A stretch of DNA of 64,000 nucleotides from a virus. Location of the stretch: the IMG/VR virus record IMGVR_UViG_3300044739_000018, positions 62,001 to 126,000 of that record. One strand, written 5' to 3'. The translations under genes and the position numbers were made by a program. This document shows positions 25,337 to 54,420 of the stretch, piece after piece; positions within the stretch are counted from its first letter, which is position 1; every line of letters starts with the position of its first letter. The notes beneath the pieces are model-generated. The model saw only the letters and a program-made list of their open reading frames with translations. It was not told the DNA's origin and searched no databases.

Positions 25337-25953
25337 AAGATCCTCCTCTTGTTTGGCCGCGTTGAACTAAGGGGACCATCCCCGACCACGGAGCGCGGTC
25401 GTTCAAAGCAGCGGCGGTTGTCTCTCCGCCTCCCGGCGTCGCAGCCGGGCACAGCCCTAGCTTAACCCAGGGCATACGGTAGTGCCAAGGATTCCCAGAT
25501 TTCGCATAAGTGCAGGTCAGAGGCCCGGGGGGGGTCCGGTATGGGCGGAATGTCCGGTTTGAATTGCTTCGCCTGGTATCCCCGTACGCAGCGAAGAAAG
25601 TCAAAAGTCTAGAGTTGACTCTAGGGTTGGCGAGTCTGAGGTCTCGTGAACGGACGTTTTGAGATCTGTTGCCAAGCACCGCAACAGGGCTGACCTGCCC
25701 GGACGCGTTCCGACAGACGCGGCTGAACAGATTTCACAAGCTCACAATCGCCAACGGACGTTCTGTGGAAATCGAACGAGAAATCAGCTAATGGCGATTT
25801 GACAGCCGCGAAGGCGCAGGTCAGGGGTTGTCAAGACCAACAAACTAGTTGGATTTGTCGTTCGATCCTATGCCAACGGACGTTGAAATGGTTTTGTCCA
25901 CTTCTCCTGGAGGAATGCTGGCGTCAGGGAGACCCGGGCTGTATTCTGCTGGG
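25337..25953. promoter_or_regulatory. Divergent regulatory region
   Basis: About 600 nt without a gene between leftward and rightward transcription. It carries three palindrome-type sites (25648 GAACGGACGTTT, 25752 CAACGGACGTTC, 25874 CAACGGACGTTG) spaced 104 and 122 bp. A TATTCT box at 25942-25947 lies six bases before the clp-like ATG, consistent with a leaderless transcript. Confidence 0.55.
25874..25885. promoter_or_regulatory. Palindrome CAACGNNCGTTG
   Basis: CAACGGACGTTG, exact, 69 bp before the clp-like gene. Confidence 0.65.
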
Positions 25954-26529
25954 ATGTTCGAACGGTTCACTGACAAGGCGCGAAGGATCCTCGTTGTATC
26001 CCAGGAGGAGGCTCGCGAACTCGACCACAACTTCCTCGGAACCGAGCACATCATGTTGGCGATGCTGCACGAGGAAGACACCATCCCTCATGACGTGCTG
26101 GTCACCATGGGTGCCGACTACGAGCAGGCACAGAAGCTCGTCCGAGCAGCCGTGCCCGCGACAGGCGCGAGCGGCCAGGCTCCGTTCACGCCTCGGGCCA
26201 AGAAGGTCTTGGAACTCTCGCTGCGGGAAGCCCTCCAGCTTGGGCATAACTGGATTGGTCCCGAGCACATGATTCTCGCCTTGGTTCGTGAGGGTGACGG
26301 CATCGGTGTTGCCGTGCTGGAGCAGATGGGTCTCGACTGGGGAGTCATTCGCCAGGGCGTGATCGAGGAAGTGGGCAAGAAGCTCCCTCGTATGCCCGCA
26401 GCAAGGACTGTTACGCTGCCCCACGATGAGGCCAAGGAGCTGCGTGAATGGATTCTGCGGTTCGGCGGCTTGGTAAACCCGCTTCCCCATGCTCTGGACG
26501 CTGTATTGCGGCGCCTCAACAACCTTTAA
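25954..26529 (+). CDS. Stand-alone ClpC N-terminal domain protein
   Basis: 191 aa. It opens MFERFTDKARRILVVSQEEA and contains both Clp_N repeats (FLGTEHIMLAMLHEED and WIGPEHMILALVREGDG) joined by FTPRAKKVLELSLREALQLG, almost a copy of host ClpC residues 1-150. There is no AAA+ module; the remaining 40 residues are a short tail. In the host this domain binds adaptors, phospho-arginine proteins and antibiotics. A free copy could act as a decoy or adaptor for ClpCP protease. It resembles the mycobacterial ClpC2-type stand-alone domain in concept. Leaderless-looking promoter and palindromic sites lie upstream. Confidence 0.92.
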   Translation: MFERFTDKARRILVVSQEEARELDHNFLGTEHIMLAMLHEEDTIPHDVLVTMGADYEQAQKLVRAAVPATGASGQAPFTPRAKKVLELSLREALQLGHNWIGPEHMILALVREGDGIGVAVLEQMGLDWGVIRQGVIEEVGKKLPRMPAARTVTLPHDEAKELREWILRFGGLVNPLPHALDAVLRRLNNL

Positions 26530-26612: not shown

Positions 26613-27137
26613 CTAAAGTAGAGTCAATGCATGCCTGAGTAGGCGCATTGGTATGAGTTCAGACGCTGGCATGACGTAGGCACCTTTGAAGGTGCCCTCT
26701 GTTGAGATGTGCTTGATGTCGAAGCCGTATGCCCACCCCACGAACACCACTTTGATGGGTGGAGTCAATGTCTCGACCAATGCCAGGATGTAGATGCTCT
26801 CATCATGCCGTTCTCGGGGCCGAACGGCGAGGCGATACAACTCGTGCGGCTTGCTCCTGCGCATCAACGATGTCTTCACGTCGATGCAGCCGAAGTCCGA
26901 CCCGCCATCACCGACCAACGGGTTCTTGTCGATCTCGGCGCGCCGTTGGAAGTACATCTCCTCGGCTCCCATGTACCGATGCAGTGCAAGTTCCCCGAGC
27001 TGCCCAACGAGCTGATCTTCGATCAACGAGGATTGACGGTCGTCTCCTCGGACCCAGCTCACTCCGCCAATGCAAGCGTTCTCAACGTGCGTTTGAATCC
27101 GGTCGAGCGTCTGCTTGTTGATCAGCGTGTGTATCAC
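26613..27137 (-). CDS. PD-(D/E)XK-like nuclease, putative
   Basis: 174 aa from GTG 27137. QLVGQLGELALHRYMGAEE supplies the helical Glu, and GGSDFGCIDVKTSLMRR matches D-x(n)-D-x-K of the restriction-nuclease fold. Two strands follow (YILALVETL, KVVFVGWAYG). Could be a recombination or host-DNA nuclease. Confidence 0.6.
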   Translation of the reverse strand: MIHTLINKQTLDRIQTHVENACIGGVSWVRGDDRQSSLIEDQLVGQLGELALHRYMGAEEMYFQRRAEIDKNPLVGDGGSDFGCIDVKTSLMRRSKPHELYRLAVRPRERHDESIYILALVETLTPPIKVVFVGWAYGFDIKHISTEGTFKGAYVMPASELIPMRLLRHALTLL

Positions 27138-27543
27138 GGCGGATCCTCTCGATCTCTAGCTGCACGGCGAGGTCGTCAAGTTTCTCGTTGGTCTTGCGCA
27201 GCTCGATCAAGATGTTCGCGAGCAACTGCGCCGTTCCGTGGTCAGAAGTTCCCTTCGACGTGATCTCGTGGACGGCGCAGTAGTAGGAGCCGGGCGCACT
27301 GTTCGGCTCGCGGCAGAGCTTCTCCTGGCATTCGGTCGGCGGCTGCGGCACCGGGGCTGGCAGGCTCGACCGGAGCGTGTGGATCTTCGTCAGGATTTCC
27401 GGACGGGCCAGCGTCATCTTCTCGTGGGCGTACACGATGTCGAGTTCGTCGTCGTATAGCTCGGGGAGCAAGGGCAGGATCTCCGACACCCGCATGTCGT
27501 CGTAGTCCTCGATCACTATGTCCATCTTCAGTTCATCAGTCAT
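27082..27543 (-). CDS. Hypothetical protein
   Basis: 153 aa, acidic N-terminus, a Pro linker, a CQEKLCREP...YYCAVH motif like a phage zinc knuckle, then a long helix (LANILIELRKTNEKLDDLAV). Overlaps the nuclease-like gene by 56 nt. Confidence 0.65.
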   Translation of the reverse strand: MTDELKMDIVIEDYDDMRVSEILPLLPELYDDELDIVYAHEKMTLARPEILTKIHTLRSSLPAPVPQPPTECQEKLCREPNSAPGSYYCAVHEITSKGTSDHGTAQLLANILIELRKTNEKLDDLAVQLEIERIRRDTHADQQADARPDSNAR

Positions 27544-27554
27544 CGTGCCTCGGA

Positions 27555-29592
27555 TAGTCGGCGTGGGCCGGAGAGTTCCGGGTGGACCAGTCGGATGGGA
27601 GGGGTCGAGGCTAGTTGGGTCGGGGTGGGACGGGAAGTCGGTTGGCTCGGTGTGGGGCGAACTGGTTCGTCGGGCGGGGTGGGGCGGGGATGACCAGGCA
27701 TGTCAGGTGGTCCGACGCGGGGAGAAGGGGGCAGGCTGGGTTAGTCGGTAGGGCTGCTGTGGGACGGGGCGGGTAGTCGGCTGGGGACGGGTTGACTGGC
27801 ATAGGCTCGGGAAGTCGGGCAGGCCCGGGTCGGGATGGCGAGGGACGCGACGGGCTGGGGAGCGATGGGTAGGCGGGGGCAGTCGGGATGGGAGCGGGGG
27901 GACGACTCGGCTTGTCGGACAGGTGCGGAAGGGTGCGGTCTGTCGAAGCGAGTGGGGTGCGGGTCGGTGCGACAAGGTTCGTCGTAAGGGGTCGGGCCGC
28001 GCGGGGTCGGGCGGGGAGGGTTGGGTAGTCGGAGCGGGACGAGAGGGTTGGGGGCGCACCGGGGAGGGGCGGGCAGGAACGTCAGTTGGGGCGTGTTGAT
28101 GTGGCTGGGCTTGGATGGTCGGCTTGGATCGAGACGGACGGGGCGGGCAGGGGTCGGCGGGGGTAGTCGTTTGATCAGGGTCGGGTTGCGCTGGGCCGGG
28201 TAGTCGGCTTGGGTCGGGAAGGGTCGGGCGATCTTGGGTCGGCTTGTCACGTGGGAAGCGAAGGCAAGGGGTGGGTAGTCGGAATGGGATGGACAGGACT
28301 GGCCGGAATAAGGTTAGTCACTTGGACAGAGTTGTCCTGGCGAGGGGAGACAAGTCGTATGGGTTGAGACGGCTTGGGATGCAGTCGGCCAGGGACGGGT
28401 CGTCATTCGGGCAGGGGGGATTTGGCATGGCTCGGGCAGTCATGCGTCTTGGGGCGGGTGGCTTCGGGGTGGCATGTCAGATGGGGCGAAAAGGGAGGGA
28501 CGGGTGAGGTCCGGATAGTCGCGCTGGGGCGTGCGGGCACGGGACGGCATGAGTAGTCGCGTAGGTGTGAGACGGGTGGGATAGGCATGGCGTGTCATGC
28601 GGGATGGGTGGACCCGGATGGACGGGGGAGGGGGCGGGTGGGGTTGTCGTAAGGGTCGGCTCGGGAAGGCTTGCCGGGTGATCGGGCGGGCTTGGCTCGG
28701 GAAGTCGTTAGGGCCGGGAGGAGTCGGGGTGGCGAGGGTAGTCGGCCAGGATTGGTCGAGGCCGTGCCGGTATGGACCGGATAGTCGCTCGGGGCGAGAC
28801 GGAGAGCGCCGGGGTGGCATGGGTTGTCGGGGTGGGACGGCTCGGGCGGGGCAGGGTGGGGCCGGATCGGGGGGAGCCGGGCGGTGACGACTCGGGCCGG
28901 GACGGGACGTCGATGCGTGCAGGGACGCGATGGAACGGGGAGGGTAGTCAGGAGGGGATGCGAAGGGTCGGGTTGGGTAGTCGCCAGGGAGGGGGCGTCG
29001 GGGGCAGGGTCGGACGGGGTTGGGTGGTCGAGCAGGGATGCGTTGGATCGGGGAGACCTGGGAAGTCGACCGGACAGGGGCGGGCCGAGGCGCGAAGGGC
29101 TGGGGTCGGGTAGTCGAGAGGGCGGTGACGAGGTGGCTAGGGCGGGATAGTCGCGTGGCGTGGGCCGAGGCGGTACGGGTGGACCCGGGTAGTCAGACGA
29201 CTTGGGGCGGGTGGGACCGGTAAGTCGAAAGAATAGGTCTGACTAGGGAGGGGTAGTCGGATTGATTAGGAGGGCCGCGGCTGGGGGTGGTAAGGGAAGT
29301 CGGTGAGCGCGGGGTTGGGTCGACCAGGGAAGTCAGATGGTAGGGCCAGGGAAGCCGTGACTCGGGACGGGTAGTCGTGCGGGGTGGGTTGAGCTGAGGA
29401 GGCGGGGGTGGGATTGGTTGGTCAGATGGGGCAGGGGATGAAGCGCCGATGGGCTGGGCTGGGCAGGGAAGTCAGATGGGGCGGGTTGGGATGTTGAGAC
29501 GAGACGGGGGCAGGCGGGGGATGTCGGCGGGGGCAGGAGCGGGACGGCGTGGGCAGCGTTGCGACGGATTGGGGAGGGACGGGTAGTCGTGT
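27555..29592. repeat. G-rich degenerate tandem array, 5-nt register
   Basis: About 2 kb with no credible gene; the top strand is extremely G-rich. I counted 49 copies of a GTCGG-like core, usually preceded by TA or AA (GGGTAGTCGG). Between cores, GG recurs every 5 nt (NNNGG). Core-to-core distances are mostly 32/33, 37/38, 42/43 or 47/48, i.e. 2 or 3 modulo 5 in 43 of 48 intervals by hand count. Antisense frames through it are Pro-rich by-products. Candidate roles are a G-quadruplex or R-loop zone, a replication or partition locus, or a C-rich Rho-loading leader on the other strand. Confidence 0.85.
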
Positions 29593-29639: not shown

Positions 29640-29665
29640 GAACGAGACCGGCTACCCCGAAGGGT
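29640..29665 (-). terminator. Hairpin, possible terminator
   Basis: GGCTACCC-CGAA-GGGTAGCC, an 8-bp stem with a tetraloop, lies just downstream of the leftward gene at 29706 and before the G-rich array. Confidence 0.55.
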
Positions 29666-29705
29666 AGCCCGTCACGTTCAGCCTTTCAAGAGCAAGTTCT
29701 TTTCC

Positions 29706-30100: not shown

Positions 30101-30756
30101 TACAGCTTGGCCCACTCCACGACGGCGTACCGTCCGTAGCTCTGGCTGCGGGTGGCACCAATGCCCTGCTGCTCGCCGGTGGTCCAGAGATCGGCCCACT
30201 CGTCGTCGGAGAAGTCGAAGTCGCTTCGCACCGAGAACGGCACCTTCGCGTCCTCGACGTACTCCTCGTACTGAATGCCCGTTCCACGGAAGGTGGAGAC
30301 GAACCGCTGCTGGATGCCGGACGGCTCGGTGACGCCCAGGTGCAGGCGATCCTCGATGACGAAGATGTGCTCCGCCACGAATGCCTTCGTGCCCTTGCGG
30401 GTGGGACCCCAGCGGCGGTCAGGCCAGCGGATCGAAGCCGCCTCCTTCAACGCCGCCTTGAGCTGACGGCCCTCGATGTAGAGGCCCTCGTCGTCTCTTT
30501 TGAACCCATTGAGCTTGGTGGTCTTGACGACCTCGTCGATGGCGTCGTCCTTGACCACGCCGCGCTCCAGCATGGTCTTGGTGACCAGCTCAGAGATCAG
30601 CGCCTGGTTGTCGGCACCGAGGGTCTTCTTGATCCAGCCCTCGGCCACCTTGGGGTCGGACGGGATGCCGCCGACCAGGTGATCGACCTGGAGCACGCCG
30701 CCGAAGCGGTTCTTGTAGAGGGCGTCGCGATGCTTCTCGAACACACTGTTTGCCAT
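30100..30756 (-). CDS. Possible RAMP-like protein
   Basis: 218 aa. LYIEGRQLKAALKEAASI resembles the RAMP start-of-helix motif, and the C-terminus GIGATRSQSYGRYAVVEW resembles the glycine-rich loop of Cas5/Cas6/Cas7-type RNA-binding proteins. HIFVIEDRLHLG and the strands between fit a ferredoxin-like fold. No CRISPR array or other cas gene is in the window, so any RNA role is open. The resemblance is by eye only. Confidence 0.6.
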   Translation of the reverse strand: MANSVFEKHRDALYKNRFGGVLQVDHLVGGIPSDPKVAEGWIKKTLGADNQALISELVTKTMLERGVVKDDAIDEVVKTTKLNGFKRDDEGLYIEGRQLKAALKEAASIRWPDRRWGPTRKGTKAFVAEHIFVIEDRLHLGVTEPSGIQQRFVSTFRGTGIQYEEYVEDAKVPFSVRSDFDFSDDEWADLWTTGEQQGIGATRSQSYGRYAVVEWAKL

Positions 30757-30777: not shown

Positions 30778-31299
30778 TTAGACGGATTCCTGCGTGATGC
30801 TTTGGTACAGCCGGGTGAACTCCTCGTCGGAGATCACGTCCTTGACGGTCTTGCCGGTCGGGACCTGCTTGGCAAGCTGCTTGAAGAACATGGCCTCCAT
30901 CGAGAGCCTCGCGGCCTGGCTGCCATAGCTCGTGGCGACATAGCTCAGATCGGCGTTCGTCATGTCGCCCACCTGCCGCCTGGTGTTGCTGTCGTCGATG
31001 ACATACATCTGCGACAGCGGGTTCTCGCCCGCCCTGACCGCGGCCACGAAGTTGTCAAACTTCTCGGCACGCATGAGCTGGCGGGCCTCGGCCCGACGCT
31101 TCGCCAAGGTGTGGCTGGCGACCTCACGGAGCTGACCGAGGGCCAGGTCGTGCTGCCACTCCGACAGATGCTCCGGTGCATGCTCCTCCAGCCAAGCGAG
31201 GGCCTTCTCGGCAACCTCTCGGCTGGTGAAGTCACCATGCTCGGGGATGGCCTGCTCCACCGCGTTCTTCACGATGATCGCTGGCCGAATGTCGTCCAT
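30778..31299 (-). CDS. Helical hypothetical protein
   Basis: 173 aa from ATG 31299, all-helical with an N-terminal block like a structure-specific or anti-restriction protein (REVAEKALAWLEEHAPEHLS). Family not recognised. Confidence 0.7.
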   Translation of the reverse strand: MDDIRPAIIVKNAVEQAIPEHGDFTSREVAEKALAWLEEHAPEHLSEWQHDLALGQLREVASHTLAKRRAEARQLMRAEKFDNFVAAVRAGENPLSQMYVIDDSNTRRQVGDMTNADLSYVATSYGSQAARLSMEAMFFKQLAKQVPTGKTVKDVISDEEFTRLYQSITQESV

Positions 31300-31449: not shown

Positions 31450-32289
31450 TCAGGTGGTCACCGGCTTGGCAACCTTGCTTGCCTTGACGATGGCCTTCTT
31501 CGTGGGCTTGGCACCGCGGAGCCGACCGTGCCGAGTGAAGGGGTCGCGCAGACGGCGACCGGAGTGCTTGTTGATGATCTTGATGAAGCTCCTCGCAAGC
31601 TCGATGTGATTGTTCGATCCGGTGACCGAACGGGTCCGAGCCTGGCTGTCCATCAAGAGGGCGCGCGGGGACTCGTTGCGCAGCGCGTCCGCGACCATGG
31701 ACGTGTCCAGGTCGGGGAAGGCGATGAGCGTCAGGGACAGGCCCTTGAGCACCCGGTCATCGAAGGCAGAGGCGAGGTTCGCCCACGCCGACGTGACGAC
31801 GTTCATCGTGCGCCGGACGGCAGTTGCGCCGCCCCGCTCGTACATCCAGTACATGGCCCGCACGGCACGGATGTTCTTGGCACCCGCGTCATTGCTGAGC
31901 TTGTAGCCGAACGACGTGATGATCTCGTCGATCTCCTTGGCCTTGGCCTCGCCAGCGAACAACTGCGCCCGGTGCCGAGCGGCGGGCGTGATGTTCTTGC
32001 GGCCCTCCTGAGCACGGACGAACAGGCTGGCCTGGTCCTGCGGGGTGTCGGGGCTGATCTGCGCCCAAGCTGTCGTGAAACCGAGGCGACGGAGCGCCTC
32101 CAGCCGGTGCTGACCGTCCCACACCCATGTCGGGGCCGAGTGGTCGTCGTGGGCGATCATCAGAACGCCCAACAGACGCGGGTCGTACTCAGCGACGATC
32201 TTCATGACCCGGCCCTCATCCAGCTCCCGCTGGTAGCCCGGATGCACACGAAGACCGCTGAGCGGAATCTCCTTGTACTGCGTGGTCAT
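31450..32289 (-). CDS. ParB/DGQHR-domain-like protein
   Basis: 279 aa from ATG 32289. IPLSGLRVHPGYQRELDEGR and VWDGQHRLEALRRLG match the ParB N-domain / DGQHR fold, a CTP-binding nuclease-like or DNA-binding module. The middle is helical and the C-terminus is Lys-rich (KPTKKAIVKASKVAKP). No ParA is nearby. It could regulate or bind a repeated DNA locus such as the array 2 kb away; that link is inference. Confidence 0.75.
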   Translation of the reverse strand: MTTQYKEIPLSGLRVHPGYQRELDEGRVMKIVAEYDPRLLGVLMIAHDDHSAPTWVWDGQHRLEALRRLGFTTAWAQISPDTPQDQASLFVRAQEGRKNITPAARHRAQLFAGEAKAKEIDEIITSFGYKLSNDAGAKNIRAVRAMYWMYERGGATAVRRTMNVVTSAWANLASAFDDRVLKGLSLTLIAFPDLDTSMVADALRNESPRALLMDSQARTRSVTGSNNHIELARSFIKIINKHSGRRLRDPFTRHGRLRGAKPTKKAIVKASKVAKPVTT

Positions 32290-32482
32290 TGCCGTTTCCT
32301 CCATGTTGGCGTTGTGCGGACGAGAGTAGAGCACAGGTTGATCACCGGAGTCAATACCCCCGGACAAAGATTCTTTGCCCACCGATTACAGGCCGTCAGC
32401 GGGCCTAATTTTCCATCCGAACAGCGAACTACTTCGATGTTCTTCAAGCGGGCACGGCTGGTGACCTTATGGATGGTCTTCT

Positions 32483-46386: not shown

Positions 46387-46454
46387 ACGCCGGAGTCAAG
46401 GTGATCATCGGGTCTCCAAAACCCGTGGAGTGGGTTCGATTCCTACCCGGCGTG
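46387..46454 (+). tRNA. tRNA-Trp(CCA)
   Basis: Acceptor ACGCCGG/CCGGCGT, loop CTCCAAA, T-arm GTGGG-TTCGATT-CCTAC, G73. D-arm short. Confidence 0.85.
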
Positions 46455-46595
46455 CAAGGAGAATGTACCTCCGGCGTCATACGGAGTGAGGATCTCCAGC
46501 AGGCGATAGTCCGGTACCGAACATAACCCGGACGCATAGGCATCGGAAATGAAGTACCCCGGGAGGGGCGGTTACGGCTGTCCCTCCTGGGTCAT

Positions 46596-46678
46596 GGGTC
46601 GGTATGCAAACGGTGAAGCAAGCTGGCTGTAAACCAGTGACGTAAGAGACGTTGGGGGTTCGAATCCCTCCTGGCCCA
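46596..46678 (+). tRNA. tRNA-Tyr(GTA)
   Basis: Acceptor GGGTCGG/CTGGCCC, loop CTGTAAA, long variable arm as in bacterial Tyr, A73. Confidence 0.93.
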
Positions 46679-46803
46679 CAAATCCGACGAGAACCTCGCT
46701 GTTGTGAGACAAACTGTTGTAGCAGGACCGTCCGTGAGCCGGAGGTTATAGGCCCGGACATAGAGGCGGTCTACGCGACCAGGAGGTCACTCATCGGAAG
46801 CAT

Positions 46804-46877
46804 GCTCCACTAACTCAATTGGCTAGAGTACCTGCCTCTTAAGCAGGGAGTTCAGGGTTCGAGTCCCTGGTGGAGTA
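46804..46877 (+). tRNA. tRNA-Lys(CTT)
   Basis: Acceptor GCTCCAC/GTGGAGT, loop CTCTTAA, T-arm CAGGG-TTCGAGT-CCCTG, A73. Confidence 0.93.
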
Positions 46878-46960
46878 CGAGCAGGAAGTTCCGGTTCAAT
46901 TCCGGAGGCCGTGGCGCAAGCCAGGGTTTGGTGTAACGGCAGCACACCTGCGTTGTTCAC
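46878..46960 (+). pseudogene. Two tRNA fragments
   Basis: An isolated T-arm (TCCGG-TTCAATT-CCGGA) is followed by an isolated 5' half with a normal D-arm (GGTGTAACGGCAGCAC). Neither completes a cloverleaf. Probable relics of recombination. Confidence 0.5.
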
Positions 46961-47034
46961 GGTCCTATAGATCAGATGGTTAGATCGCTACCCTGTCAAG
47001 GTAGAGGCCGCGGGTTCGAGTCCCGTTAGGACCG
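46961..47034 (+). tRNA. tRNA-Asp(GTC)
   Basis: Acceptor GGTCCTA/TAGGACC, loop CTGTCAA, T-arm GCGGG-TTCGAGT-CCCGT, G73. Confidence 0.93.
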
Positions 47035-47061
47035 CGCAAGTAATGGTGAAGCTGAACTGAA

Positions 47062-47113
47062 GCTCGCAGAGGGAACTGGACTGTGAATCCAGGGCCACCA
47101 GTCTGGAACGAGC
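47062..47113 (+). pseudogene. tRNA-like hairpin with GTG loop
   Basis: A good anticodon-like stem-loop (CTGGA-CTGTGAA-TCCAG) within GCTCG/CGAGC, but there is no T-arm. Probably a decayed tRNA-His. Confidence 0.35.
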
Positions 47114-47295
47114 CGAAGGAATGCCCAAGCCTTGCTCCGCCAGTCGTCGGCCGACTGACATGCCTGTGATGACATATTGGGCTTCATGCCCTCGGGACCA
47201 CCAGCGATAGCCGATGGGCGTCCTAAGCTGATGTGCCGAAATACCCGCCCAACTTCTTCGGGAGTTGGGATTGCGCCTTGAAGCGCAGCAGTCTA

Positions 47296-47367
47296 GTCTC
47301 GATGGTGAAATGGAGATCATTGCGGTCTACGAAACCGCCGTTAGAGGTTCGAATCCTCTTCGAGACG
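47296..47367 (+). tRNA. tRNA-Arg(ACG)
   Basis: Acceptor GTCTCGA/TCGAGAC, loop CTACGAA, G73. A34 would need editing to inosine. Confidence 0.92.
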
Positions 47368-47376
47368 CCACCACAC

Positions 47377-47450
47377 GTCGATGTAGCTCAGCCGGACAGA
47401 GCGCGGGCCTCCGAAGCCCGAGGCCAGAGGTTCGAACCCTCTCATCGACG
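47377..47450 (+). tRNA. tRNA-Arg(CCG)
   Basis: Acceptor GTCGATG/CATCGAC, loop CTCCGAA, G73. The next gene starts two bases after its end. Confidence 0.93.
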
Positions 47451-47452
47451 CC

Positions 47453-47842
47453 ATGAAGATCCAAGGTTGGCTCGACTGGTTCCGCGAGCACGCTTTGCCC
47501 AGGGACACGTTCATCGAGAAGGTGACCGACCACGTGGGCAACGTCAGCCGGACCCGTGAAACCAAGATCAAGGTTCCTCGCCGTGCCCGCATGGACGAGA
47601 TCGACAAGCTCCTGGCTGCGGCCAAGGGCGTGAAGCTCGATACCGAGATCATCGTTCCGGCCCATGCCGTGGCTGCGGAGGGGGCGACAACGACGATTCA
47701 GATGAATTGCGCTGACTGCAACGAACGTTGCAACGGAAGCGTGAAGACTTCCTGGCTCACCAGTCAGGCAGCAGGAGATCTAGTGAGGTGGCAGTGCGCC
47801 AAGTGCGGACTGGAGCAGTTTTGCAGTATCACGCCGCAGTAG
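47453..47842 (+). CDS. Zinc-pair hypothetical protein inside tRNA operon
   Basis: 129 aa. ATG lies two bases after tRNA-Arg(CCG), with no ribosome site, and the TAG is positions 8-10 of tRNA-Thr(GGT). C-terminal NCADCNERC...WQCAKCGLEQFC is a zinc ribbon. Function unknown. Confidence 0.75.
   Translation: MKIQGWLDWFREHALPRDTFIEKVTDHVGNVSRTRETKIKVPRRARMDEIDKLLAAAKGVKLDTEIIVPAHAVAAEGATTTIQMNCADCNERCNGSVKTSWLTSQAAGDLVRWQCAKCGLEQFCSITPQ
47719..47730. promoter_or_regulatory. Palindrome CAACGNNCGTTG
   Basis: CAACGAACGTTG, exact, inside a gene of the tRNA operon. Confidence 0.6.
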
Positions 47843-47905
47843 CGTCAACGGTTAGCGCGCGTCCTTGGTACGGACGAAGTTCAGGTTCGATTCCTGACTG
47901 TGGCT
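47833..47905 (+). tRNA. tRNA-Thr(GGT)
   Basis: Acceptor GCCGCAG/CTGTGGC, loop TTGGTAC, T73. Overlaps the CDS end by 10 nt. Confidence 0.9.
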
Positions 47906-48002
47906 CTCGGAGTGTCGGGTACCAGTGATGGCCCGAAGCGACCTGCCCCCAAAGTACCGGTTGAGGGGACGGTTGTATCGAGCACTCCTATCCCGGGTGG
48001 TG

Positions 48003-48025
48003 GCGGGCTGGTAGCTCCAGCCCGC
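48003..48025 (+). other. Strong hairpin between tRNAs
   Basis: GCGGGCTGG-TAGCT-CCAGCCCGC, nine perfect pairs. The stretch 47906-48038 otherwise has no gene. Possible processing signal. Confidence 0.5.
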
Positions 48026-48038
48026 TGCTTCCCATCAC

Positions 48039-48110
48039 GTCTCTGTAGTTCAAAGGAAAGAACACGAGTTTCCTAAACTTGCGATGGGGGTTCGAGTCCT
48101 CCCAGAGACG
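48039..48110 (+). tRNA. tRNA-Arg(CCT)
   Basis: Acceptor GTCTCTG/CAGAGAC, loop TTCCTAA, T-arm GGGGG-TTCGAGT-CCTCC, G73. Confidence 0.9.
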
Positions 48111-48139
48111 CTCAAGCCAGTGGATGCCATCATGCCGTT

Positions 48140-48221
48140 GGAAGGGAACATCCGGCTGCGTAGTAGCCGTCCTGAAAGACGTTCGTGCGGGCATCGGCGG
48201 GTTCGACCCCCGTAGCTTCCA
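48140..48221 (+). tRNA. tRNA-like, anticodon unclear
   Basis: T-arm GCGGG-TTCGACC-CCCGT and a five-pair acceptor core GGAAG/CTTCC. The anticodon arm (CGTC-CTGAAA-GACG) has a six-base loop. Could be a Ser/Phe-type tRNA that has drifted. Confidence 0.45.
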
Positions 48222-48334
48222 CAACGAGGGAGCTTGCTGCCGGTGCAGCCCTGGCACATTGTATTTCGAGCGGATAGTGCCGATCTTTAGGTGAGCAGAT
48301 CACCCCAGACCCTGGTGATTGGACTGGGGAATCT

Positions 48335-48427
48335 GTGCGCTATCGACACTACGAACTCAAGACGATCTTCATGGTTGCCTTTGTGGCCTTCGTAGTCATC
48401 AACCTCGTAATGGTGGTGGCTATATGA
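48335..48427 (+). CDS. Tiny membrane peptide
   Basis: 30 aa from GTG 48335 behind GGGGA. One transmembrane helix (MVAFVAFVVINLVMVV). ATGA overlap with the next gene. A hairpin at 48296-48335 precedes it. Confidence 0.5.
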   Translation: MRYRHYELKTIFMVAFVAFVVINLVMVVAI

Positions 48428-48834
48428 GCGGTGAAACCGAACAGCAGGTCAGTGGGTGGACAGTTGACACCCTGAATGAGCACCTCCAGCGCATCATTGA
48501 TGAGAAGCTGGCAGCTCAGGACGTGCTTATTACGGAGCGCGACCGCCGTTACGAACAACGCTTTGAGGCCCAAGAGAAGGCCATCCAGAAGGCGGAAACC
48601 GCGACCGAGAAGCGGTTCGAATCGGTCAACGAGTTCCGATCCGTGCTTTCGGACCAGACGAGGAGCTTCCTCCCTCGTGAAGAGTACAATCGTGCTCACA
48701 CAGATCTGGCTAGCCGGTTGGATGAGGCGACCAAGAGTACCAACGAGAAGTTGGAACAGGCCGTGAAGACCCTTGAGAGTCGCATTGCCTCTCTCCAGCA
48801 GCAGCTCAACGCCGTCGAAGCGGTGGTGAAGTAA
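48424..48834 (+). CDS. Coiled-coil protein
   Basis: 136 aa, almost wholly helical with heptads (RIASLQQQLNAVEAVV). First of three coupled genes; the next two add membrane helices, so together they may form a membrane complex. Confidence 0.7.
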   Translation: MSGETEQQVSGWTVDTLNEHLQRIIDEKLAAQDVLITERDRRYEQRFEAQEKAIQKAETATEKRFESVNEFRSVLSDQTRSFLPREEYNRAHTDLASRLDEATKSTNEKLEQAVKTLESRIASLQQQLNAVEAVVK

Positions 48835-49052
48835 TGCCCGTCGTGACCTTGGGGACGCTGGCCGAGAAGCTGATCGCTGCCCAGACTGGCATTGACCAGA
48901 TCCAGGTAGAACTCAGGAAGGTCAACGAGCAAGCTCTTGACCGGCGAGTCTCCAAGCTGGAAGACACCGTAAAGTTCTTGAGCCGCACAGTCGCCGCCAC
49001 GCTCATTTCGGCCATAGGGTCGGCCATCCTCGCGGTGGTGATGTCCCGATGA
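48834..49052 (+). CDS. Coiled-coil protein with C-terminal membrane helix
   Basis: 72 aa. Helix then VAATLISAIGSAILAVVM at the C-terminus, tail-anchored type. TAATG coupling. Confidence 0.7.
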   Translation: MPVVTLGTLAEKLIAAQTGIDQIQVELRKVNEQALDRRVSKLEDTVKFLSRTVAATLISAIGSAILAVVMSR

Positions 49053-49393
49053 ACGAAAAAATGGATGAGACAAAGGCGGACTCCCGCTTCAATGGAGTGC
49101 GTGTCCTCGTCACCGCCATCATTGTCGGCGTATTGGCCGTGGCGGTATTCGTGTCGGCCAGCCTCCTGACGAGAGTGCCGAAGAACGCTCAGGATCTCCG
49201 AGAGCGGTGCGTGTCATCAAACCTGGCGATCCAGCAGTTCAACACCAAGTTCTCGCAGTTGGTTGACTTGTTCGACCAGTCGCTGGCAAACCCGGACCCG
49301 AACAGGCCACCGCCGTCGCCGGAGGTCCTTGCTCTTTACGCCGAGTTCAAAAAGCCCGTCCCTCTCATCAAGTGCGAGGACGACGGCCGCTAA
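49049..49393 (+). CDS. Membrane-anchored protein
   Basis: 114 aa. N-terminal TM helix (VLVTAIIVGVLAVAVFVSASLL), then an outside helical domain with a Pro-rich loop. Resembles Rz-like layouts, but its place far from the holin argues against that. Confidence 0.7.
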   Translation: MNEKMDETKADSRFNGVRVLVTAIIVGVLAVAVFVSASLLTRVPKNAQDLRERCVSSNLAIQQFNTKFSQLVDLFDQSLANPDPNRPPPSPEVLALYAEFKKPVPLIKCEDDGR

Positions 49394-49400
49394 GTTTTCG

Positions 49401-49594
49401 TGAACCCAAGCTCAGTAGGCAGAGTAGCCTTCAGGGGCCGGAGGTCGTGGGTGGGATTCCCACCGAGTCCATCATGAGTCGTCACTCGGGTGTAGCGCCG
49501 CCAGGCTGCCTACAGTGACGGTTCATCGTGGGGTCGTAGCTCAGTACCCAGAGCACCGTCTGGAACCTACGAAAGTGCGGGTAACACAACACCT
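49401..49594 (+). pseudogene. Two degenerate tRNA-like segments
   Basis: 49401-49470 and 49531-49594 have D-arm-like starts (AAGCTCAGTAGGCAGAG; TAGCTCAGTACCCAGAGC) but abnormal T-arms (TGGGATT loop or none). Probably decayed tRNAs. Confidence 0.4.
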
Positions 49595-49677
49595 GGAGAG
49601 ATACCCAAGTGGTGAAGGGGACGGTTTGCTAAACCGTTAGGTCGAAAGGCGCGTGGGTTCGAACCCCACTCTCTCCG
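49595..49677 (+). tRNA. tRNA-Ser(GCT)
   Basis: Acceptor GGAGAGA/TCTCTCC, loop TTGCTAA, long variable arm, G73. Confidence 0.93.
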
Positions 49678-49753
49678 CGCTGGTGGGTATGCGGACTATA
49701 GGCGTGCATGCGCGCTTGGTCGTCCCGGCGCCGGGATGGCTGCCCACCGGATT

Positions 49754-50025
49754 CTTGAGATAGCCGGGTGACCGCGGCACGACTTGATCGTGTCGAGGAA
49801 GGTCGGGACTCCACAGGACGAGGGAGCCAACGAGAGTTGGGCGGGCGTGAGCTTGCGGCTCTGCAACAGAGACGAGCCGGTTAAGTCCGGGTGAAACGGG
49901 CAACCCCCTGGAGCAACTTCATACAGAGGTCGCTGGTCCGGCGATAACCTCGGGTAGAAGGCTTAGATGGATGGTCACCGCGCTACATGCTGGCGTACAG
50001 AATCCCGCCTACAAGCTATCTCAGT
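49754..50025 (+). ncRNA. rnpB: RNase P RNA (catalytic RNA)
   Basis: About 270 nt, closed by P1 TGAGATAGC/GCTATCTCA (49756-49764 with 50015-50023). The conserved blocks are in order: GAGGAAGGTCGGGACTCC (E. coli GAGGAAAGTCCGGGCTCC), TGCAACAGAGA (identical to E. coli), GGGTGAAACGG, GGAGCAA, CGGGTAGAAGGCT, TTAGATGGATGGTC (E. coli CTAGATGAATGACTG) and ACAGAATCCCGCCTAC (E. coli ACAGAACCCGGCTTAT). It is smaller than host RNase P RNAs (350-400 nt), so some peripheral helices are reduced. It would work with the host RnpA protein to mature the tRNA 5' ends. It sits between two tRNA-Ser genes. Confidence 0.9.
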
Positions 50026-50030
50026 ATCTC

Positions 50031-50117
50031 GGAGCGATGGCAGAGTCTGGTTGATTGCACCTGCCTTGAAAGCAGACGTGGGGTAACTCACCGGGGGTTC
50101 GAATCCCTCTCGCTCCG
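50031..50117 (+). tRNA. tRNA-Ser(TGA)
   Basis: Acceptor GGAGCGA/TCGCTCC, loop CTTGAAA, long variable arm, G73. Starts only a few bases after the RNase P RNA. Confidence 0.93.
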
Positions 50118-50122
50118 CTCGC

Positions 50123-50134
50123 CAACGTTCGTTG
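50123..50134. promoter_or_regulatory. Palindrome CAACGNNCGTTG
   Basis: CAACGTTCGTTG, exact, six bases after tRNA-Ser(TGA). Confidence 0.6.
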
Positions 50135-50142
50135 GCAAACCC

Positions 50143-50260
50143 GTACTCATTCCTAGTACCGCTACGCAATGTTAGTCCTCGTAACTATCCGCCTGGCTGA
50201 CCTGCGGTTTTAACGTCCTCCCACCTGTTCAAACGTGTGGCCGGTACTAGACATGAGTAC
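50143..50260 (+). ncRNA. Putative structured RNA closed by split 16-bp helix
   Basis: GTACTCAT-tc-CTAGTACC pairs with GGTACTAG-ac-ATGAGTAC, 16 pairs with a symmetric 2x2 internal loop. It encloses 82 nt with no gene. Looks like an RNase III site or an unknown RNA. Confidence 0.55.
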
Positions 50261-50272
50261 ATGACTCACCTC

Positions 50273-50356
50273 GGAAGGCATCCGAATTGGAGAGGAACCC
50301 GCCTCGAAAGCGGGCACGGTGTAACAGCCTTGTGGGTTCGAGTCCCACGCCTTCCG
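50273..50356 (+). tRNA. tRNA-Ser(CGA)
   Basis: Acceptor GGAAGGC/GCCTTCC, loop CTCGAAA, long variable arm, G73. Confidence 0.93.
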
Positions 50357-50391
50357 CTTTGACAACCCGATGTGACAGAGCAGTCTGTATC

Positions 50392-50458
50392 GTAGCTCAG
50401 TTGGATAGAGCGCCGCCCACAAGGCGGAGGTCGCAGGTTCGAGTCCTGCCGAACACTG
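50392..50458 (+). pseudogene. Degenerate tRNA-like element
   Basis: Normal D-arm (TAGCTCAGTTGGATAGAGC) and T-arm (GCAGG-TTCGAGT-CCTGC). The acceptor does not pair well and the anticodon loop lacks U33 (CCACAAG). Confidence 0.45.
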
Positions 50459-50492
50459 GAACTCTCGAATGTGCGGGCGAGTCAATAACCTC

Positions 50493-50838
50493 GGGGCTGA
50501 CAGGTTTCGACGGTGCAAGTGAAGCTAGGAGTGCGACCGGTCTTGGGCAGAGACCTAAAACGGCCTACCAAAAACAAACGACAACGACATCGTTGCCGAG
50601 GCAGAGGCCGTCCTGGCTTCTGCTGCTCTCGCTACTGTCTGACAGTAGCTTGCGGGGAAGCCCATCCTTGAGATCCAAACGGGCATGTGACATGACTCTC
50701 AGGAAAGACTGAGTGGCGCTCCGTGAAATGCGGGCTGACAGCCGGAAAGACGGCACACTGGCCCGACAGTAAACGGGAATGGTCGTATCACAAGTAGTGA
50801 ATCTGCAACGGACGTGGGTTCGAATCCCACCAGCTCCA
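50493..50838 (+). ncRNA. ssrA: tmRNA
   Basis: Starts GGGGCTGACAGGTTTCGACGG and ends with T-arm GTGGG-TTCGAAT-CCCAC and CAGCTCC-A; the acceptor pairs with GGGGCTG. The tag frame reads about TNDNDIVAEAEAVLASAAL-ATV then TGA, so it ends ATV, not the usual LAA, much like the tag I recall for phage Bxz1. CCA is not encoded. It would rescue ribosomes on mRNAs lacking a stop. Confidence 0.95.
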
Positions 50839-50848
50839 CGTGTATGCG

Positions 50849-50945
50849 CAACGAAAGGTTGGCTTAGAGGCAGCCATCCTATAATGAGTGGGGTAACGGT
50901 CCATCTTGGCAGTAGCTGGGGTGGACCTCCGGGCAATACCGTTGG
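50849..50945 (+). ncRNA. RNA resembling 23S rRNA L11-binding domain
   Basis: GTTGGCTTAGAGGCAGCCATC at 50857-50879 differs by one base from E. coli 23S helix 43, and the following CTATAATGAGTGGGGTAAC resembles the next part (helix 44) of actinobacterial 23S. Further helices (AACGGT/ACCGTT, GGTCCA/TGGACC) close it. The rest of the gap to 51063 has no clear gene. Could be a decoy for L11, thiostrepton-like ligands or translation factors. A decayed tRNA D-arm is the alternative. Confidence 0.5.
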
Positions 50946-51063
50946 AGACAGCGAGTACGTCCGGGATCAGGTACGTGGGGACTAGCCTGCCCATCGGTAA
51001 CCGCTTTCTCCGTTCCTCGGAACCGCCCTTTGGCGTAATAGCACATCCTTGCGTGACACACCT

Positions 51064-51146
51064 GGAGAGGACCCGAACGGTCAGGAGCCTCGTTGGAAGC
51101 GAGGTACGGGTGCAAGCCCTAGTGGGTTCGACCCCCACCCTCTCCG
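51064..51146 (+). tRNA. tRNA-Ser(GGA)
   Basis: Acceptor GGAGAGG/CCTCTCC, loop TTGGAAG, long variable arm, G73. Fourth Ser isoacceptor. Confidence 0.92.
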
Positions 51147-51207
51147 CTCCACATAGCGGGACGACAACTAATCGCGTTACAGGAAGTCGTTCTGCACGAC
51201 CAAGGAG

Positions 51208-51384
51208 GTGAGTGAAGGTTATCAGCACCTACATCCGGTGGCATCAAGCTTCCGTTTGGAGCCTTCTCTCACACCGCAACCTGATCTGAAAGTGGTACGA
51301 CCGGCCCGACAAGAGGCTACCCTCCTCAGCGTCCCGCCTCCCTGGCTCGGTGCCCGCATGCGTGCGGGCTTACCTGCGGTGTGA
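51208..51384 (+). CDS. Possible small protein
   Basis: 58 aa from GTG 51208, or 25 aa from GTG 51212 in another frame; both follow CAAGGAGG. Composition is not strongly protein-like. A GCCCGCA-TGCG-TGCGGGC hairpin follows at about 51357. Region 51385-51509 has no other gene. Confidence 0.3.
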   Translation: MSEGYQHLHPVASSFRLEPSLTPQPDLKVVRPARQEATLLSVPPPWLGARMRAGLPAV

Positions 51385-51431
51385 TTCCTCAGGTGAGAGT
51401 GGTCGTGAATCCACGTGATTTGACGGTAAGC

Positions 51432-51443
51432 CAACGCTCGTTG
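51432..51443. promoter_or_regulatory. Palindrome CAACGNNCGTTG
   Basis: CAACGCTCGTTG, exact, in a non-coding part of the tRNA operon. Confidence 0.6.
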
Positions 51444-51509
51444 CAGTGAGAACGTGGCTTCGCAGGAACAAGATGTCGGAATGCTGAACTGGCCGTGACG
51501 GTGCAGTCG

Positions 51510-51580
51510 TTGGGATTCGTATATCGGTAGTACACCCGGCTTTGAACCGGGTGGAGTGGGTTCGACTCCCGCATCCCCCC
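51510..51580 (+). tRNA. tRNA-Gln(TTG)
   Basis: Anticodon stem CCCGG/CCGGG, loop CTTTGAA, T-arm GTGGG-TTCGACT-CCCGC. The first two acceptor pairs are mismatched. Confidence 0.8.
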
Positions 51581-51629
51581 TTGAACGGAGACTGAAACAC
51601 CTGATCCAAAGGTAACAGCGTTCCATCAT

Positions 51630-51700
51630 GCCCCCATCGTTTATGGGTAGGACATCAGCCTTTCAAGCTGATAGACAGGGTTCGAGTCCCTGTGGGGGTA
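51630..51700 (+). tRNA. tRNA-Glu(TTC)
   Basis: Acceptor GCCCCCA/TGGGGGT, loop CTTTCAA, A73. Confidence 0.93.
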
Positions 51701-51704
51701 CCAA

Positions 51705-51775
51705 GGCGCATTAGTTTAGTGGGAAAACAACTGGTTCTCAGCCAGTCGTCAGGAGTTCGATCCTCCTATGCGCTA
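51705..51775 (+). tRNA. tRNA-Glu(CTC)
   Basis: Acceptor GGCGCAT/ATGCGCT, loop TTCTCAG, A73. Second copy of this anticodon. Confidence 0.93.
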
Positions 51776-51832
51776 CTCATAGCAACGGCTCCGTGGCTCC
51801 TCCATCGGTACACCCGATGAGAGGGGGTGAAC

Positions 51833-51994
51833 GTGCCCAAGTATCACAGAGTAACGGGAGCCACCCGCTGCTATGTCTGCGGCCAGCGTCTGACGCTGAC
51901 CGACTATGACGACGGCGATGAGGTCATCGCTAGTCACATAGACAAGACTCACATGAGAGTCATCAAGGCTCTCATTCGTTTCGCCCGCTCCTAG
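51833..51994 (+). CDS. Small C2H2-like zinc-finger protein
   Basis: 53 aa from GTG 51833 behind GGGGGTGA. RCYVCGQRLTLTDYDDGDEV and SHIDKTH give C-x2-C...H-x4-H. Ends TAG. Possibly DNA- or RNA-binding. Confidence 0.65.
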   Translation: MPKYHRVTGATRCYVCGQRLTLTDYDDGDEVIASHIDKTHMRVIKALIRFARS

Positions 51995-52053
51995 CTGGCG
52001 GCCCGGCGACACCTGCCGTAAGTGGTGTGACGTGGGGGAGAGACCTCATCCAT

Positions 52054-52127
52054 TGCCGGGTAGCTCAGATAGGCAGAGCAGCCGCCTGTTAAGCGGAAGC
52101 GCGTGGGTTCGATCCCCACCCTGGCAG
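52054..52127 (+). tRNA. tRNA-Asn(GTT)
   Basis: Acceptor TGCCGGG/CCTGGCA, loop CTGTTAA, G73. Confidence 0.93.
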
Positions 52128-52131
52128 CCAT

Positions 52132-52203
52132 GGGACGATAGCCAAGTGGTAAGGCGACGGATTGCAACCCCGTCATTCGTCGGTTCGATTCCGACTCGTC
52201 CCT
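52132..52203 (+). tRNA. tRNA-Cys(GCA)
   Basis: Acceptor GGGACGA/TCGTCCC, loop TTGCAAC, T73. An A-C mismatch closes the anticodon loop. Confidence 0.88.
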
Positions 52204-52256
52204 CCATGTGATACAGAACCCGATCCTGACCTAGCAGGAGCAGTCGCCGCGGGGTC

Positions 52257-52308
52257 CCCCATGTATCCACAAACTGAGAGATACTATTCAGAATGTGGAT
52301 AGATGGGG
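52257..52308 (+). other. Long hairpin with symmetric internal loop
   Basis: CCCCAT-gt-ATCCACA pairs with TGTGGAT-ag-ATGGGG. Same design as the helix at 50143. A small CCTCC-GGT-GGAGG hairpin follows. Candidate RNase III processing signal. Confidence 0.55.
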
Positions 52309-52359
52309 TCCTCCGGTGGAGGACTGAAACTGGTGATGGTAGGGTAACTGTCTCAACTT

Positions 52360-52432
52360 GTGCGTGTAGCTCAACTGGCAGAGCACGACGTTGCCAACGT
52401 CGAGGTCGAGGGTTCGAACCCCTTCACGCACT
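52360..52432 (+). tRNA. tRNA-Gly(GCC)
   Basis: Acceptor GTGCGTG/CACGCAC, loop TTGCCAA, T73. Confidence 0.93.
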
Positions 52433-52437
52433 CGCAT

Positions 52438-52510
52438 GCGGGAGTGATGTCAACGGTTAGCATCTCTGCCTTCCAAGCAGATCGTGCCGGTTCGAATCCG
52501 GTCTCCCGTT
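52438..52510 (+). tRNA. tRNA-Gly(TCC)
   Basis: Acceptor GCGGGAG/CTCCCGT, loop CTTCCAA, T73. Confidence 0.93.
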
Positions 52511-52511
52511 C

Positions 52512-52540
52512 TTGACGCTGGCACCGGCGTGTCATAAAAT
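52512..52540 (+). promoter_or_regulatory. Internal promoter
   Basis: TTGACG (52512-52517), 17-nt spacer, TAAAAT (52535-52540): the best -10 in the operon. Transcription should begin about 52547. Confidence 0.75.
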
Positions 52541-52546
52541 GGGCGT

Positions 52547-52711
52547 TGGCGGAGAAGCCTACGGGGCGACTCCGAGTGTAATCCGATCAGTCGAACCTCA
52601 GCCTCACGGTGAAGGCCCACTACTTACTCAAAGCCGGAACCTAAAGGCGGGCACCGTAATCGGGTTGCCGCGCAAAGAAAGTACCGAGAAGGGGCCGCAA
52701 GGCCCCTTCTC
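52547..52711 (+). ncRNA. Putative independent small RNA
   Basis: About 165 nt between the promoter and a GAGAAGGGGCC-GCAA-GGCCCCTTCTC hairpin (52686-52711). Internal pairing includes ACGGTG/CACCGT and TTG-GCGG/CCGC-G-CAA. A frame is open through it but crosses the terminator into a tRNA. Not recognised as 6S, SRP or a known riboswitch. Confidence 0.55.
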
Positions 52712-52715
52712 ACTA

Positions 52716-52787
52716 GCCTTCGTGATGTCAACGGCAGCATTCCTGTCTTGTAAACAGGTCGTGGCGGTTCGAATCCGTCCGGAGGCT
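52716..52787 (+). tRNA. tRNA-Thr(TGT)
   Basis: Acceptor GCCTTCG/CGGAGGC, loop CTTGTAA, T73. Confidence 0.92.
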
Positions 52788-52927
52788 CCAAGCAGTTGTG
52801 ATGAAGCAGCATGTAAGCCGCCTGGCGGTGGAAACTCGCGGTCCGAATCTCAGGCTGGCAGAAATGCCAAGGGAACGGTGGCACTGGGAGCCGTTGGGGT
52901 GTTGGAACTTCTTGAATGACTGCTCAT

Positions 52928-53002
52928 GGTTCAGTAGCTCAGACTGGTTAGAGCGTCCGGTTGAAACCCGGGAGGTCGTCCGTTCGATCCGGACCTGAAC
53001 CA
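52928..53002 (+). tRNA. tRNA-Phe(GAA)
   Basis: Acceptor GGTTCAG/CTGAACC, loop TTGAAAC, A73. The 140 nt before it contain a tRNA-like but unfoldable segment. Confidence 0.93.
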
Positions 53003-53017
53003 CGCCGATAGAGTCTC

Positions 53018-53251
53018 ATGGCTTCTATCACCATCACCATCCCCGATGCTCAGGTTCAACGAGTGTTGGACGCCTTCAGCCATCGTTACGGCTACCAAGA
53101 CCAGATTGACGGCGCACCAAACCCTCAAACGAAGGTCCAGTTCGCCAAGCAGCAGGTGGCACTCTGGATCAAGCGAGAGACCGAGGACTACGAGCGGGCA
53201 ATCCGAATCGCAGCAGCCGAGGCGGCTGCCATTGCACTCGACGCCACCTGA
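53018..53251 (+). CDS. Hypothetical protein
   Basis: 77 aa. MASITITIPDAQVQRVLDAF looks like the start of a small phage structural or tail-associated domain, Ala-rich helix at the end. Function unknown. Confidence 0.7.
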   Translation: MASITITIPDAQVQRVLDAFSHRYGYQDQIDGAPNPQTKVQFAKQQVALWIKRETEDYERAIRIAAAEAAAIALDAT

Positions 53252-53265
53252 CGTAGAATCAGACC

Positions 53266-53616: not shown

Positions 53617-53678
53617 CTCAGAGGCAGAGTGCCAGGACGACACCCTGGTGGTCATTGGTTCGAATCCAATCGTGTCCA
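53607..53678 (+). tRNA. tRNA-Val(GAC)
   Basis: Acceptor GGACGCG/CGTGTCC, stem CCAGG/CCTGG, loop ACGACAC with C instead of U at 33. A73. Confidence 0.85.
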
Positions 53679-53682
53679 CGCA

Positions 53683-53896: not shown

Positions 53897-53966
53897 TGCC
53901 GTGTGATTTGGTAATCAAGGCTGGCTTATATCCAGCCCCTCTCGGGTTCGACTCCCGGCGCGGCTA
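53897..53966 (+). tRNA. tRNA-Ile(TAT)
   Basis: Acceptor TGCCGTG/CGCGGCT with a T-T first pair, D-stem GATT/AATC, loop CTTATAT, A73. Confidence 0.85.
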
Positions 53967-54120: not shown

Positions 54121-54161
54121 CTCAGAAATACGACTGATGCAGCAATAGAAACAGCGACCAG

Positions 54162-54416: not shown

Positions 54417-54420
54417 CCAT

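What the first reader, a model, noticed from the sequence alone, without database searches (positions are those of the whole stretch)
27555..29592. 2-kb G-rich array with a 5-nt GG register reset by a GTCGG core
No gene, a heavily G-skewed top strand, about 49 GTCGG-like cores. Between cores GG falls every five bases. By hand count 43 of 48 core distances equal 2 or 3 modulo 5, so the structure is GTCGG-(NNNGG)n-TA, with variable bases but fixed register. It suggests selection for periodic GG, not sequence. Ideas: serial two-tier G-quadruplexes, R-loop-forming origin (like switch regions, also built of pentamers), a protein filament site, or on the other strand a C-rich Rho-loading leader.
Basis: partly seen in the sequence, partly recalled or inferred. 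Interest (0 to 1): 0.92.

Follow-up and report, generated by a model that had tools for sequence, protein, structure and literature searches.

The report
Phage VIPR guide-RNA array
The strange G-rich stretch is most likely a store of about 48 short RNA guides used by an actinobacterial phage, with a CRISPR-like protein encoded next door, to recognise and silence genes of rival phages; it belongs to the VIPR systems first described in a 2026 preprint.

Summary
In detail: GG recurs every 5 nt (z = 8.9 over dinucleotide shuffles) and is reset by a GTC (GAC on the other strand). On the strand of the flanking genes the grammar is GAC-(NNYCC)n, about 49 units. It is a tandem array of gapped guide RNAs (VIPR), not a G4, R-loop or Rho element.

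A neighbouring gene (30103-30756, minus strand) encodes a Cas7/Csm3-fold RAMP protein. An unbiased protein search found 78 relatives (some redundant). 53 have such an array within 3.5 kb; 60 of 63 arrays lie in the same orientation, with the sequence rewritten and the register kept. Reading only the NN dinucleotides with a 1-nt skip, array guides match genes of other phages far above shuffled controls; skips of 0, 2 and 3 stay at chance. Full-length matches have the skipped base on the codon wobble position: C5-methyltransferase, terminase, ImmA/IrrE-like protease, and rival vipr genes. Two window guides spell the tyrosine-integrase motif; one has near matches (19-22 of 24) in actinobacterial integrases, and this phage record shows no integrase.

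This is the code reported for VIPR (PMC13142463). Open: which strand is transcribed (C-rich favoured), and which of the seven published types this is. No RNA was measured.

The parts
27552..29588 (-). Array of about 49 units GAC-(NNYCC)n (48 guides of mostly 5-9 pentamers plus a closing unit); G-rich on the + strand as (GGRNN)n-GTC
   Evidence: HMM parses; periodicity
29526..29588 (-). Guide 0 (12 NN); read backwards with 1-nt skip = G[HQ]ATV[HQ][FL]T[FL][DE]TY, the tyrosine-integrase motif
   Evidence: near matches (19-22 of 24) in four Phage_integrase genes, in codon phase
27817..27884 (-). Guide 41 (13 NN); read backwards = [HQ]PS[IM][DE]TTL[DE][IM]YG[HQ], the same integrase motif; no close target found
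   Evidence: negative scans
28829..28911 (-). Unit 15 (16 NN); nine consecutive NN match recT motif GPDGQWRDV; tentative, only 9 of 16 NN
30103..30756 (-). Vipr candidate: 218-aa Cas7/Csm3-fold RAMP protein with Gly-rich loop GIGATRSQSYGRY
   Evidence: AF2 model; Foldseek and VIA; PADLOC Csm4/Csm3 hits across the family; profile comparison
30781..31299 (-). Conserved helical partner gene (phrog_4604-like), adjacent to the RAMP gene in many relatives; candidate vap accessory gene
   Evidence: no PDB fold match
31450..32382 (-). ParB-like / DUF6551 gene next to the module; link to the system unknown
29661..29689 (-). Candidate promoter TTGAAA-17-TACCCT upstream of the array on the C-rich strand
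   Evidence: consensus score only; sequence
27082..27543 (-). Gene directly downstream of the array; the array runs up to its ribosome-binding region. No relative found

Best explanation
The region is a VIPR-type guide array of an actinobacterial phage. It is transcribed, most likely on the C-rich (minus) strand together with the operon, into RNA made of units GAC-(NNYCC)n. The neighbouring Cas7-fold RAMP protein is inferred to line up along each unit, one protomer per pentamer: it would hold the conserved YCC (GGR on the other strand), which explains the strict 5-nt register, and leave the variable NN free to pair with double-stranded DNA. Successive NN pairs are read with one target base skipped, so the site has a 3-nt period and the skipped base usually falls on the codon wobble position. 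Each unit is thus a separate guide. Targets are genes of rival mobile elements, among them tyrosine integrase for the window array. Binding probably represses transcription, as shown for phage SUSP1 VIPR. Shown here: register, association with the RAMP gene, 1-nt-skip target matches. Inferred: transcription, unit processing, RNP formation, repression.
For: (1) The adjacent gene has a Csm3/Cas7 fold: the top 50 Foldseek PDB hits are all CRISPR RAMP or effector chains, best E 1.9e-5; VIA Z 9.1 over 152 residues; 12 of 19 family members hit PADLOC Csm4, best E 2e-4. (2) Of 78 loci found by protein alone (some redundant), 53 have an array within 3.5 kb and 60 of 63 arrays have the same orientation. 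(3) Over 68 non-redundant arrays with 6124 pentamers, the last two positions are C at 70% and 95% while both NN positions are near even (the parse favours this). (4) 845 guides against 2.43 Mb of phage DNA with arrays masked: with a 1-nt skip, 5 hits of score 17 or more against 0.0 in shuffles and 12 of score 16 or more against 2.3; skips 0, 2 and 3 at chance. Full-length in-phase hits: C5-methyltransferase 20/20, rival vipr gene 18/18, terminase motif 16/16 in two phages, ImmA/IrrE-like 25/28. (5) Window guide 0 spells G[HQ]ATV[HQ][FL]T[FL][DE]TY; in 394 actinomycete genomes at up to 3 mismatches it gives 14 hits against 2 for the reversed control, and 4 of 6 independent contexts are Pfam Phage_integrase genes at that motif. 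The phage's own record has no integrase match and no such site. (6) The published VIPR system has the same parts and the same 1-nt-skip rule.
Against: No RNA or binding data. The vipr-sense strand is CC-rich, whereas SUSP1-clade arrays have GG on the sense strand. Direct profile similarity to SUSP1-clade Vipr is weak (E 6.8e-4, HH probability 27%). Window units are mostly 5-9 pentamers, shorter than the 9-16 reported, and no common structured tail was found. No perfect full-length target was found for any window guide; guide 41 had none. 25 of 78 RAMP loci have no array above threshold (some truncated or diverged). Some shuffled-control thresholds rest on few hits.
Confidence: 0.92

Rival explanations
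1. It is a VIPR array, but the guide RNA is the G-rich (+) strand, antisense to the vipr operon: (GGRNN)n followed by a short GGGNAGTC tail.
For: SUSP1 vrRNAs are GG-rich and their repeat tract ends in GGGTAGT or GGNAGT tails, like the G-strand core GGGNAGTC here; RAMP proteins of one family would then read the same GG-x-NN order.
Against: The array is on the vipr-sense strand as CC in 60 of 63 cases. Consensus promoters with score 7.5 or more lie upstream of the C-strand in 7 of 58 arrays and of the G-strand in none, although mean scores on neither side exceed shuffles. It would need antisense promoters inside coding starts.
Confidence: 0.28
2. The array is a binding lattice for the RAMP protein used for autoregulation or as an RNA sponge, without DNA targeting.
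For: In many relatives the array ends directly at the ribosome-binding site of the RAMP gene, and regular lattices suit cooperative coating.
Against: Does not explain the excess of 1-nt-skip matches in codon phase to genes of other phages or the integrase reading of window guides. In the window and several relatives the array is not in front of the RAMP gene.
Confidence: 0.04
3. A C-rich Rho-loading leader or Rho decoy.
For: C-rich, G-poor RNA is a classical Rho ligand (general knowledge); composition.
Against: Rho needs no fixed 5-nt register with GAC resets; does not predict the RAMP neighbour or the target matches.
Confidence: 0.02
4. G-quadruplex series, R-loop origin or switch-like region.
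For: G-rich strand with many short G tracts.
Against: Found in many phages at different genomic positions, tied to a protein gene; NN positions carry target information.
Confidence: 0.01

Closest known systems
VIPR systems (Viral Interference Programmable Repeat; Escherichia phage SUSP1, type II), PMC13142463
   Same: Phage-encoded single RAMP protein with a small partner gene and intergenic pentanucleotide-repeat guides with variable NN; 1-nt-skip code with wobble skipping; targets in competing phages, including other vipr genes.
   Different: Sense strand carries YCC/NN rather than GGY/NN; units separated by GAC and packed head to tail, about 49 in one array; units shorter; no SUSP1-type structured tail; partner gene is a different protein family. 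Whether this equals one of the seven published types could not be checked, as supplements were not available.
Gordonia phage UmaThurman and Mycobacterium phage LittleE loci (SUSP1-clade Vipr relatives)
   Same: Actinophage RAMP gene with tandem 5-nt-register arrays; UmaThurman also has head-to-tail units with register resets.
   Different: GGYNN on the vipr-sense strand; RAMP protein only remotely similar.
Type III-A CRISPR Csm3 and type VII Cas7
   Same: Fold of the protein.
   Different: No near-identical CRISPR repeats; 5-nt rather than 6-nt register and gapped reading.

Membership tests
VIPR | RAMP homolog with RRM core and Gly-rich loop encoded beside the array, mainly in phages | tested here: met
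VIPR | Sequence homology of the RAMP protein to characterised Vipr (SUSP1 clade) | tested here: inconclusive
   hhalign colinear including the Gly-rich loop, E 6.8e-4 for one comparison but HH probability 27%
VIPR | Pentanucleotide repeats alternating a conserved trinucleotide (GGY or related consensus) with variable NN | tested here: met
   NNYCC on the vipr-sense strand, GGRNN on the other
VIPR | GGY on the transcribed strand | not testable with these tools
   No RNA data; the vipr-sense strand has YCC
VIPR | NN dinucleotides specify targets with a 1-nt skip | tested here: met
   for the array family; for window guide 0 (near matches only)
VIPR | Natural targets in competing mobile elements | tested here: met
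   Targets in other phages' methyltransferase, terminase, ImmA/IrrE-like and vipr genes; integrase genes
VIPR | Accessory vap gene | tested here: inconclusive
   Conserved helical partner gene beside the RAMP gene with no known fold match
VIPR | Expressed vrRNA bound by the Vipr protein | not testable with these tools
   needs RNA sequencing and pull-down
VIPR type II (SUSP1-like) | 9-16 GGY/NN repeats per vrRNA followed by a structured invariant 3' tail, GG on the vipr-sense strand | tested here: not met
   CC on the sense strand, mostly 5-9 pentamers, GAC separators
CRISPR array | Near-identical direct repeats of about 20 nt or more between unique spacers, with cas genes | tested here: not met
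   No tandem repeat found there by TRF; only GAC and the YCC register recur; no PADLOC hit for the window RAMP protein itself
Rho-loading (rut) leader | Rho-dependent termination or binding | not testable with these tools
   composition alone fits; no test possible

The most novel reading that the evidence does not exclude
This actinophage branch is a distinct VIPR variant that uses C-rich guides (GAC handle, YCC/NN lattice) of opposite polarity to the GGY/NN guides described, stored in CRISPR-like head-to-tail arrays of up to about 49 short units, with separate evolution of the RAMP read-out.
Probability: 0.4. Interest if true: 0.8.

Novelty: new member of a known kind. Interest (0 to 1): 0.68.

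Why it matters
It supports, independently of the discoverers' material, that the gapped 1-nt-skip guide code is real and used by actinobacterial phages, and it offers an array of about 48 guides with a readable target, the integrase of temperate rivals. It shows that a phage arsenal can be decoded from DNA alone by translating NN dinucleotides as codons. If the C-rich polarity is confirmed, RAMP proteins have two opposite ways of presenting a gapped guide, which bears on how CRISPR effectors arose.

Tried and rejected
Coding function: stops in all frames in the window array, so no single ORF; open frames in relatives fit the low stop frequency of C-rich DNA. recT as target of unit 15: 11 of 15 pattern hits are recT-like genes in phase, but homologous hits count as one event, only 9 of 16 NN match, and a second guide pattern gave 10 unrelated hits, so it is tentative only. 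Integrase reading of guide 41: exact scans of viral and genome collections empty, none in 50 related records, and one 3-mismatch hit that does not look like an integrase. Guides 0 and 41 against 30 top PF00589 loci, apparently XerC/D-like: no enrichment. Promoter scan: only the high tail favours the C-strand; means do not exceed shuffles. First unit parse missed that the dinucleotide after GAC belongs to the guide; redone. Partner gene fold: no PDB match. Megablast of 25 kb in phage records: none. RAMP in plasmids: none. FtsZ hit of the RAMP profile (E 0.0027) taken as chance.

Full report
Observation. The stretch 27555-29592 is 52% G and 17% C on the + strand. GG recurs at 5 and 10 nt (z 8.9 and 6.2 against dinucleotide shuffles). 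An HMM parse finds 49 cores with spacings 2 or 3 mod 5 in 45 of 48 (the parse favours this register). Rfam and TRF find nothing there.

Context. The window is part of a 163,481-base virus record of about 60% GC with a long tRNA array. All genes next to the array are on the minus strand, so on the gene strand the array is C-rich. Over 68 non-redundant arrays in relatives the pentamer is NNYCC and the reset is GAC; the last C is 95% conserved and the NN positions are near even.

Relatives. A protein search with window:30100-30756 gave viral contigs at 57-61% identity that carry the same kind of array between a partner gene and that gene. A degenerate DNA pattern and a profile search gave many more. 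Of 78 loci found by protein alone, 53 have an array within 3.5 kb, and 60 of 63 such arrays have the same orientation. The sequence between relatives is rewritten but the register is kept. Bacterial relatives are an Actinomadura, a Streptacidiphilus and an Acidimicrobiales MAG; both cultured ones show the array. A record labelled Microcystis phage Mae-JY09 also has gene and array.

The protein. The AlphaFold2 model (mean pLDDT 68) matches only CRISPR Cas7-type RAMP or effector chains among the top 50 PDB hits, VIA Z 9.1 to Csm3. Family members hit PADLOC Csm4 and Csm3 models weakly. No Pfam family covers it.

Literature. A paper search found one match: VIPR systems (PMC13142463, bioRxiv 2026), phage RAMP proteins with guides of YNNGG repeats whose NN dinucleotides pair with double-stranded DNA with a 1-nt skip, aimed at competing phages. 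No other paper on it was found.

Test of the code. Guides parsed from all arrays (845 unique) were searched in 2.43 Mb of held phage DNA with arrays masked, at skips 0-3 and with shuffled NN order. Only the 1-nt skip exceeds shuffles: 5 against 0.0 hits at score 17 or more, 12 against 2.3 at 16 or more. The best are full-length and in codon phase with the skip on the wobble base: NAADYGVPQT of a C5-methyltransferase (20/20, and 19/20 in two other phages), LAERVFVEE in a rival RAMP gene (18/18), RGPHGLGK of terminase in two phages (16/16 each), EREADRFAAAFLMP of an ImmA/IrrE-like protein (25/28). Gene names for the methyltransferase, terminase and ImmA/IrrE targets come from motif recognition, not from a database match. 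A first, cruder parse had shown the same preference.

Window guides. Guide 0 reads, backwards, G[HQ]ATV[HQ][FL]T[FL][DE]TY and guide 41 [HQ]PS[IM][DE]TTL[DE][IM]YG[HQ], both the C-terminal motif of tyrosine integrases. In 394 actinomycete genomes guide 0 gave 14 hits at up to 3 mismatches against 2 for the reversed control; 4 of 6 independent contexts are Pfam integrases at this motif. Guide 41 found no close target. Neither integrase nor the guide 0 site is found in this record. A recT reading of unit 15 is only tentative.

Strand. The C-rich strand is favoured by orientation and by strong consensus promoters upstream of 7 of 58 arrays against none on the other side. The G-rich reading is favoured by the likeness of GGGNAGTC to SUSP1 tails GGGTAGT. 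SUSP1-clade loci carry GGYNN on the vipr-sense strand, so relative to its vipr gene this branch has the opposite polarity whichever strand is transcribed.

Verdict. The array is a VIPR-type guide array, most likely a member of a known kind described in 2026. Polarity and architecture differ from the SUSP1 type; whether that is one of the seven published types could not be checked. Shown: register, gene association, target code. Inferred: transcription, processing, RNP assembly, repression.

Noticed in passing
window 49756-50027 (+): Bacterial RNase P RNA (class A, 120 bits against a gathering score of 100) inside the phage tRNA array, near a tmRNA at 50493-50841; a phage-encoded RNase P RNA looks unusual.
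   Followed up: no
window 46387-59834 (+): Very dense tRNA array; ARAGORN finds 43 tRNA/tmRNA genes in the window.
   Followed up: no
window 38010-38083 and 38648-38717 (-): Two tRNAs with anticodon CTA (called tRNA-Pyl), possible amber suppressors.
   Followed up: no
window 25849-26529 (+): Stand-alone protein with two Clp N-terminal domain matches (Pfam Clp_N, 5.8e-25), a possible Clp adaptor or decoy.
   Followed up: partly
window 31450-32382 (-): ParB-like protein (DUF6551, phrog_1033) next to the RAMP module.
   Followed up: no
L197 (PP395641, labelled Microcystis phage Mae-JY09): Record carries the RAMP gene and an 11-core array of the otherwise mostly actinobacterial type; the host label may deserve a check.
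   Followed up: partly
L235 (Gordonia phage UmaThurman) 2587-2894: Head-to-tail GGYNN units with GGCAGG-type resets beside an SUSP1-clade RAMP gene and an integrase: an isolated phage in which the system could be tested.
   Followed up: partly
L133, L138, L190: Several arrays per phage record at separate places, some with strong consensus promoters and a terminator-like hairpin just upstream.
   Followed up: no
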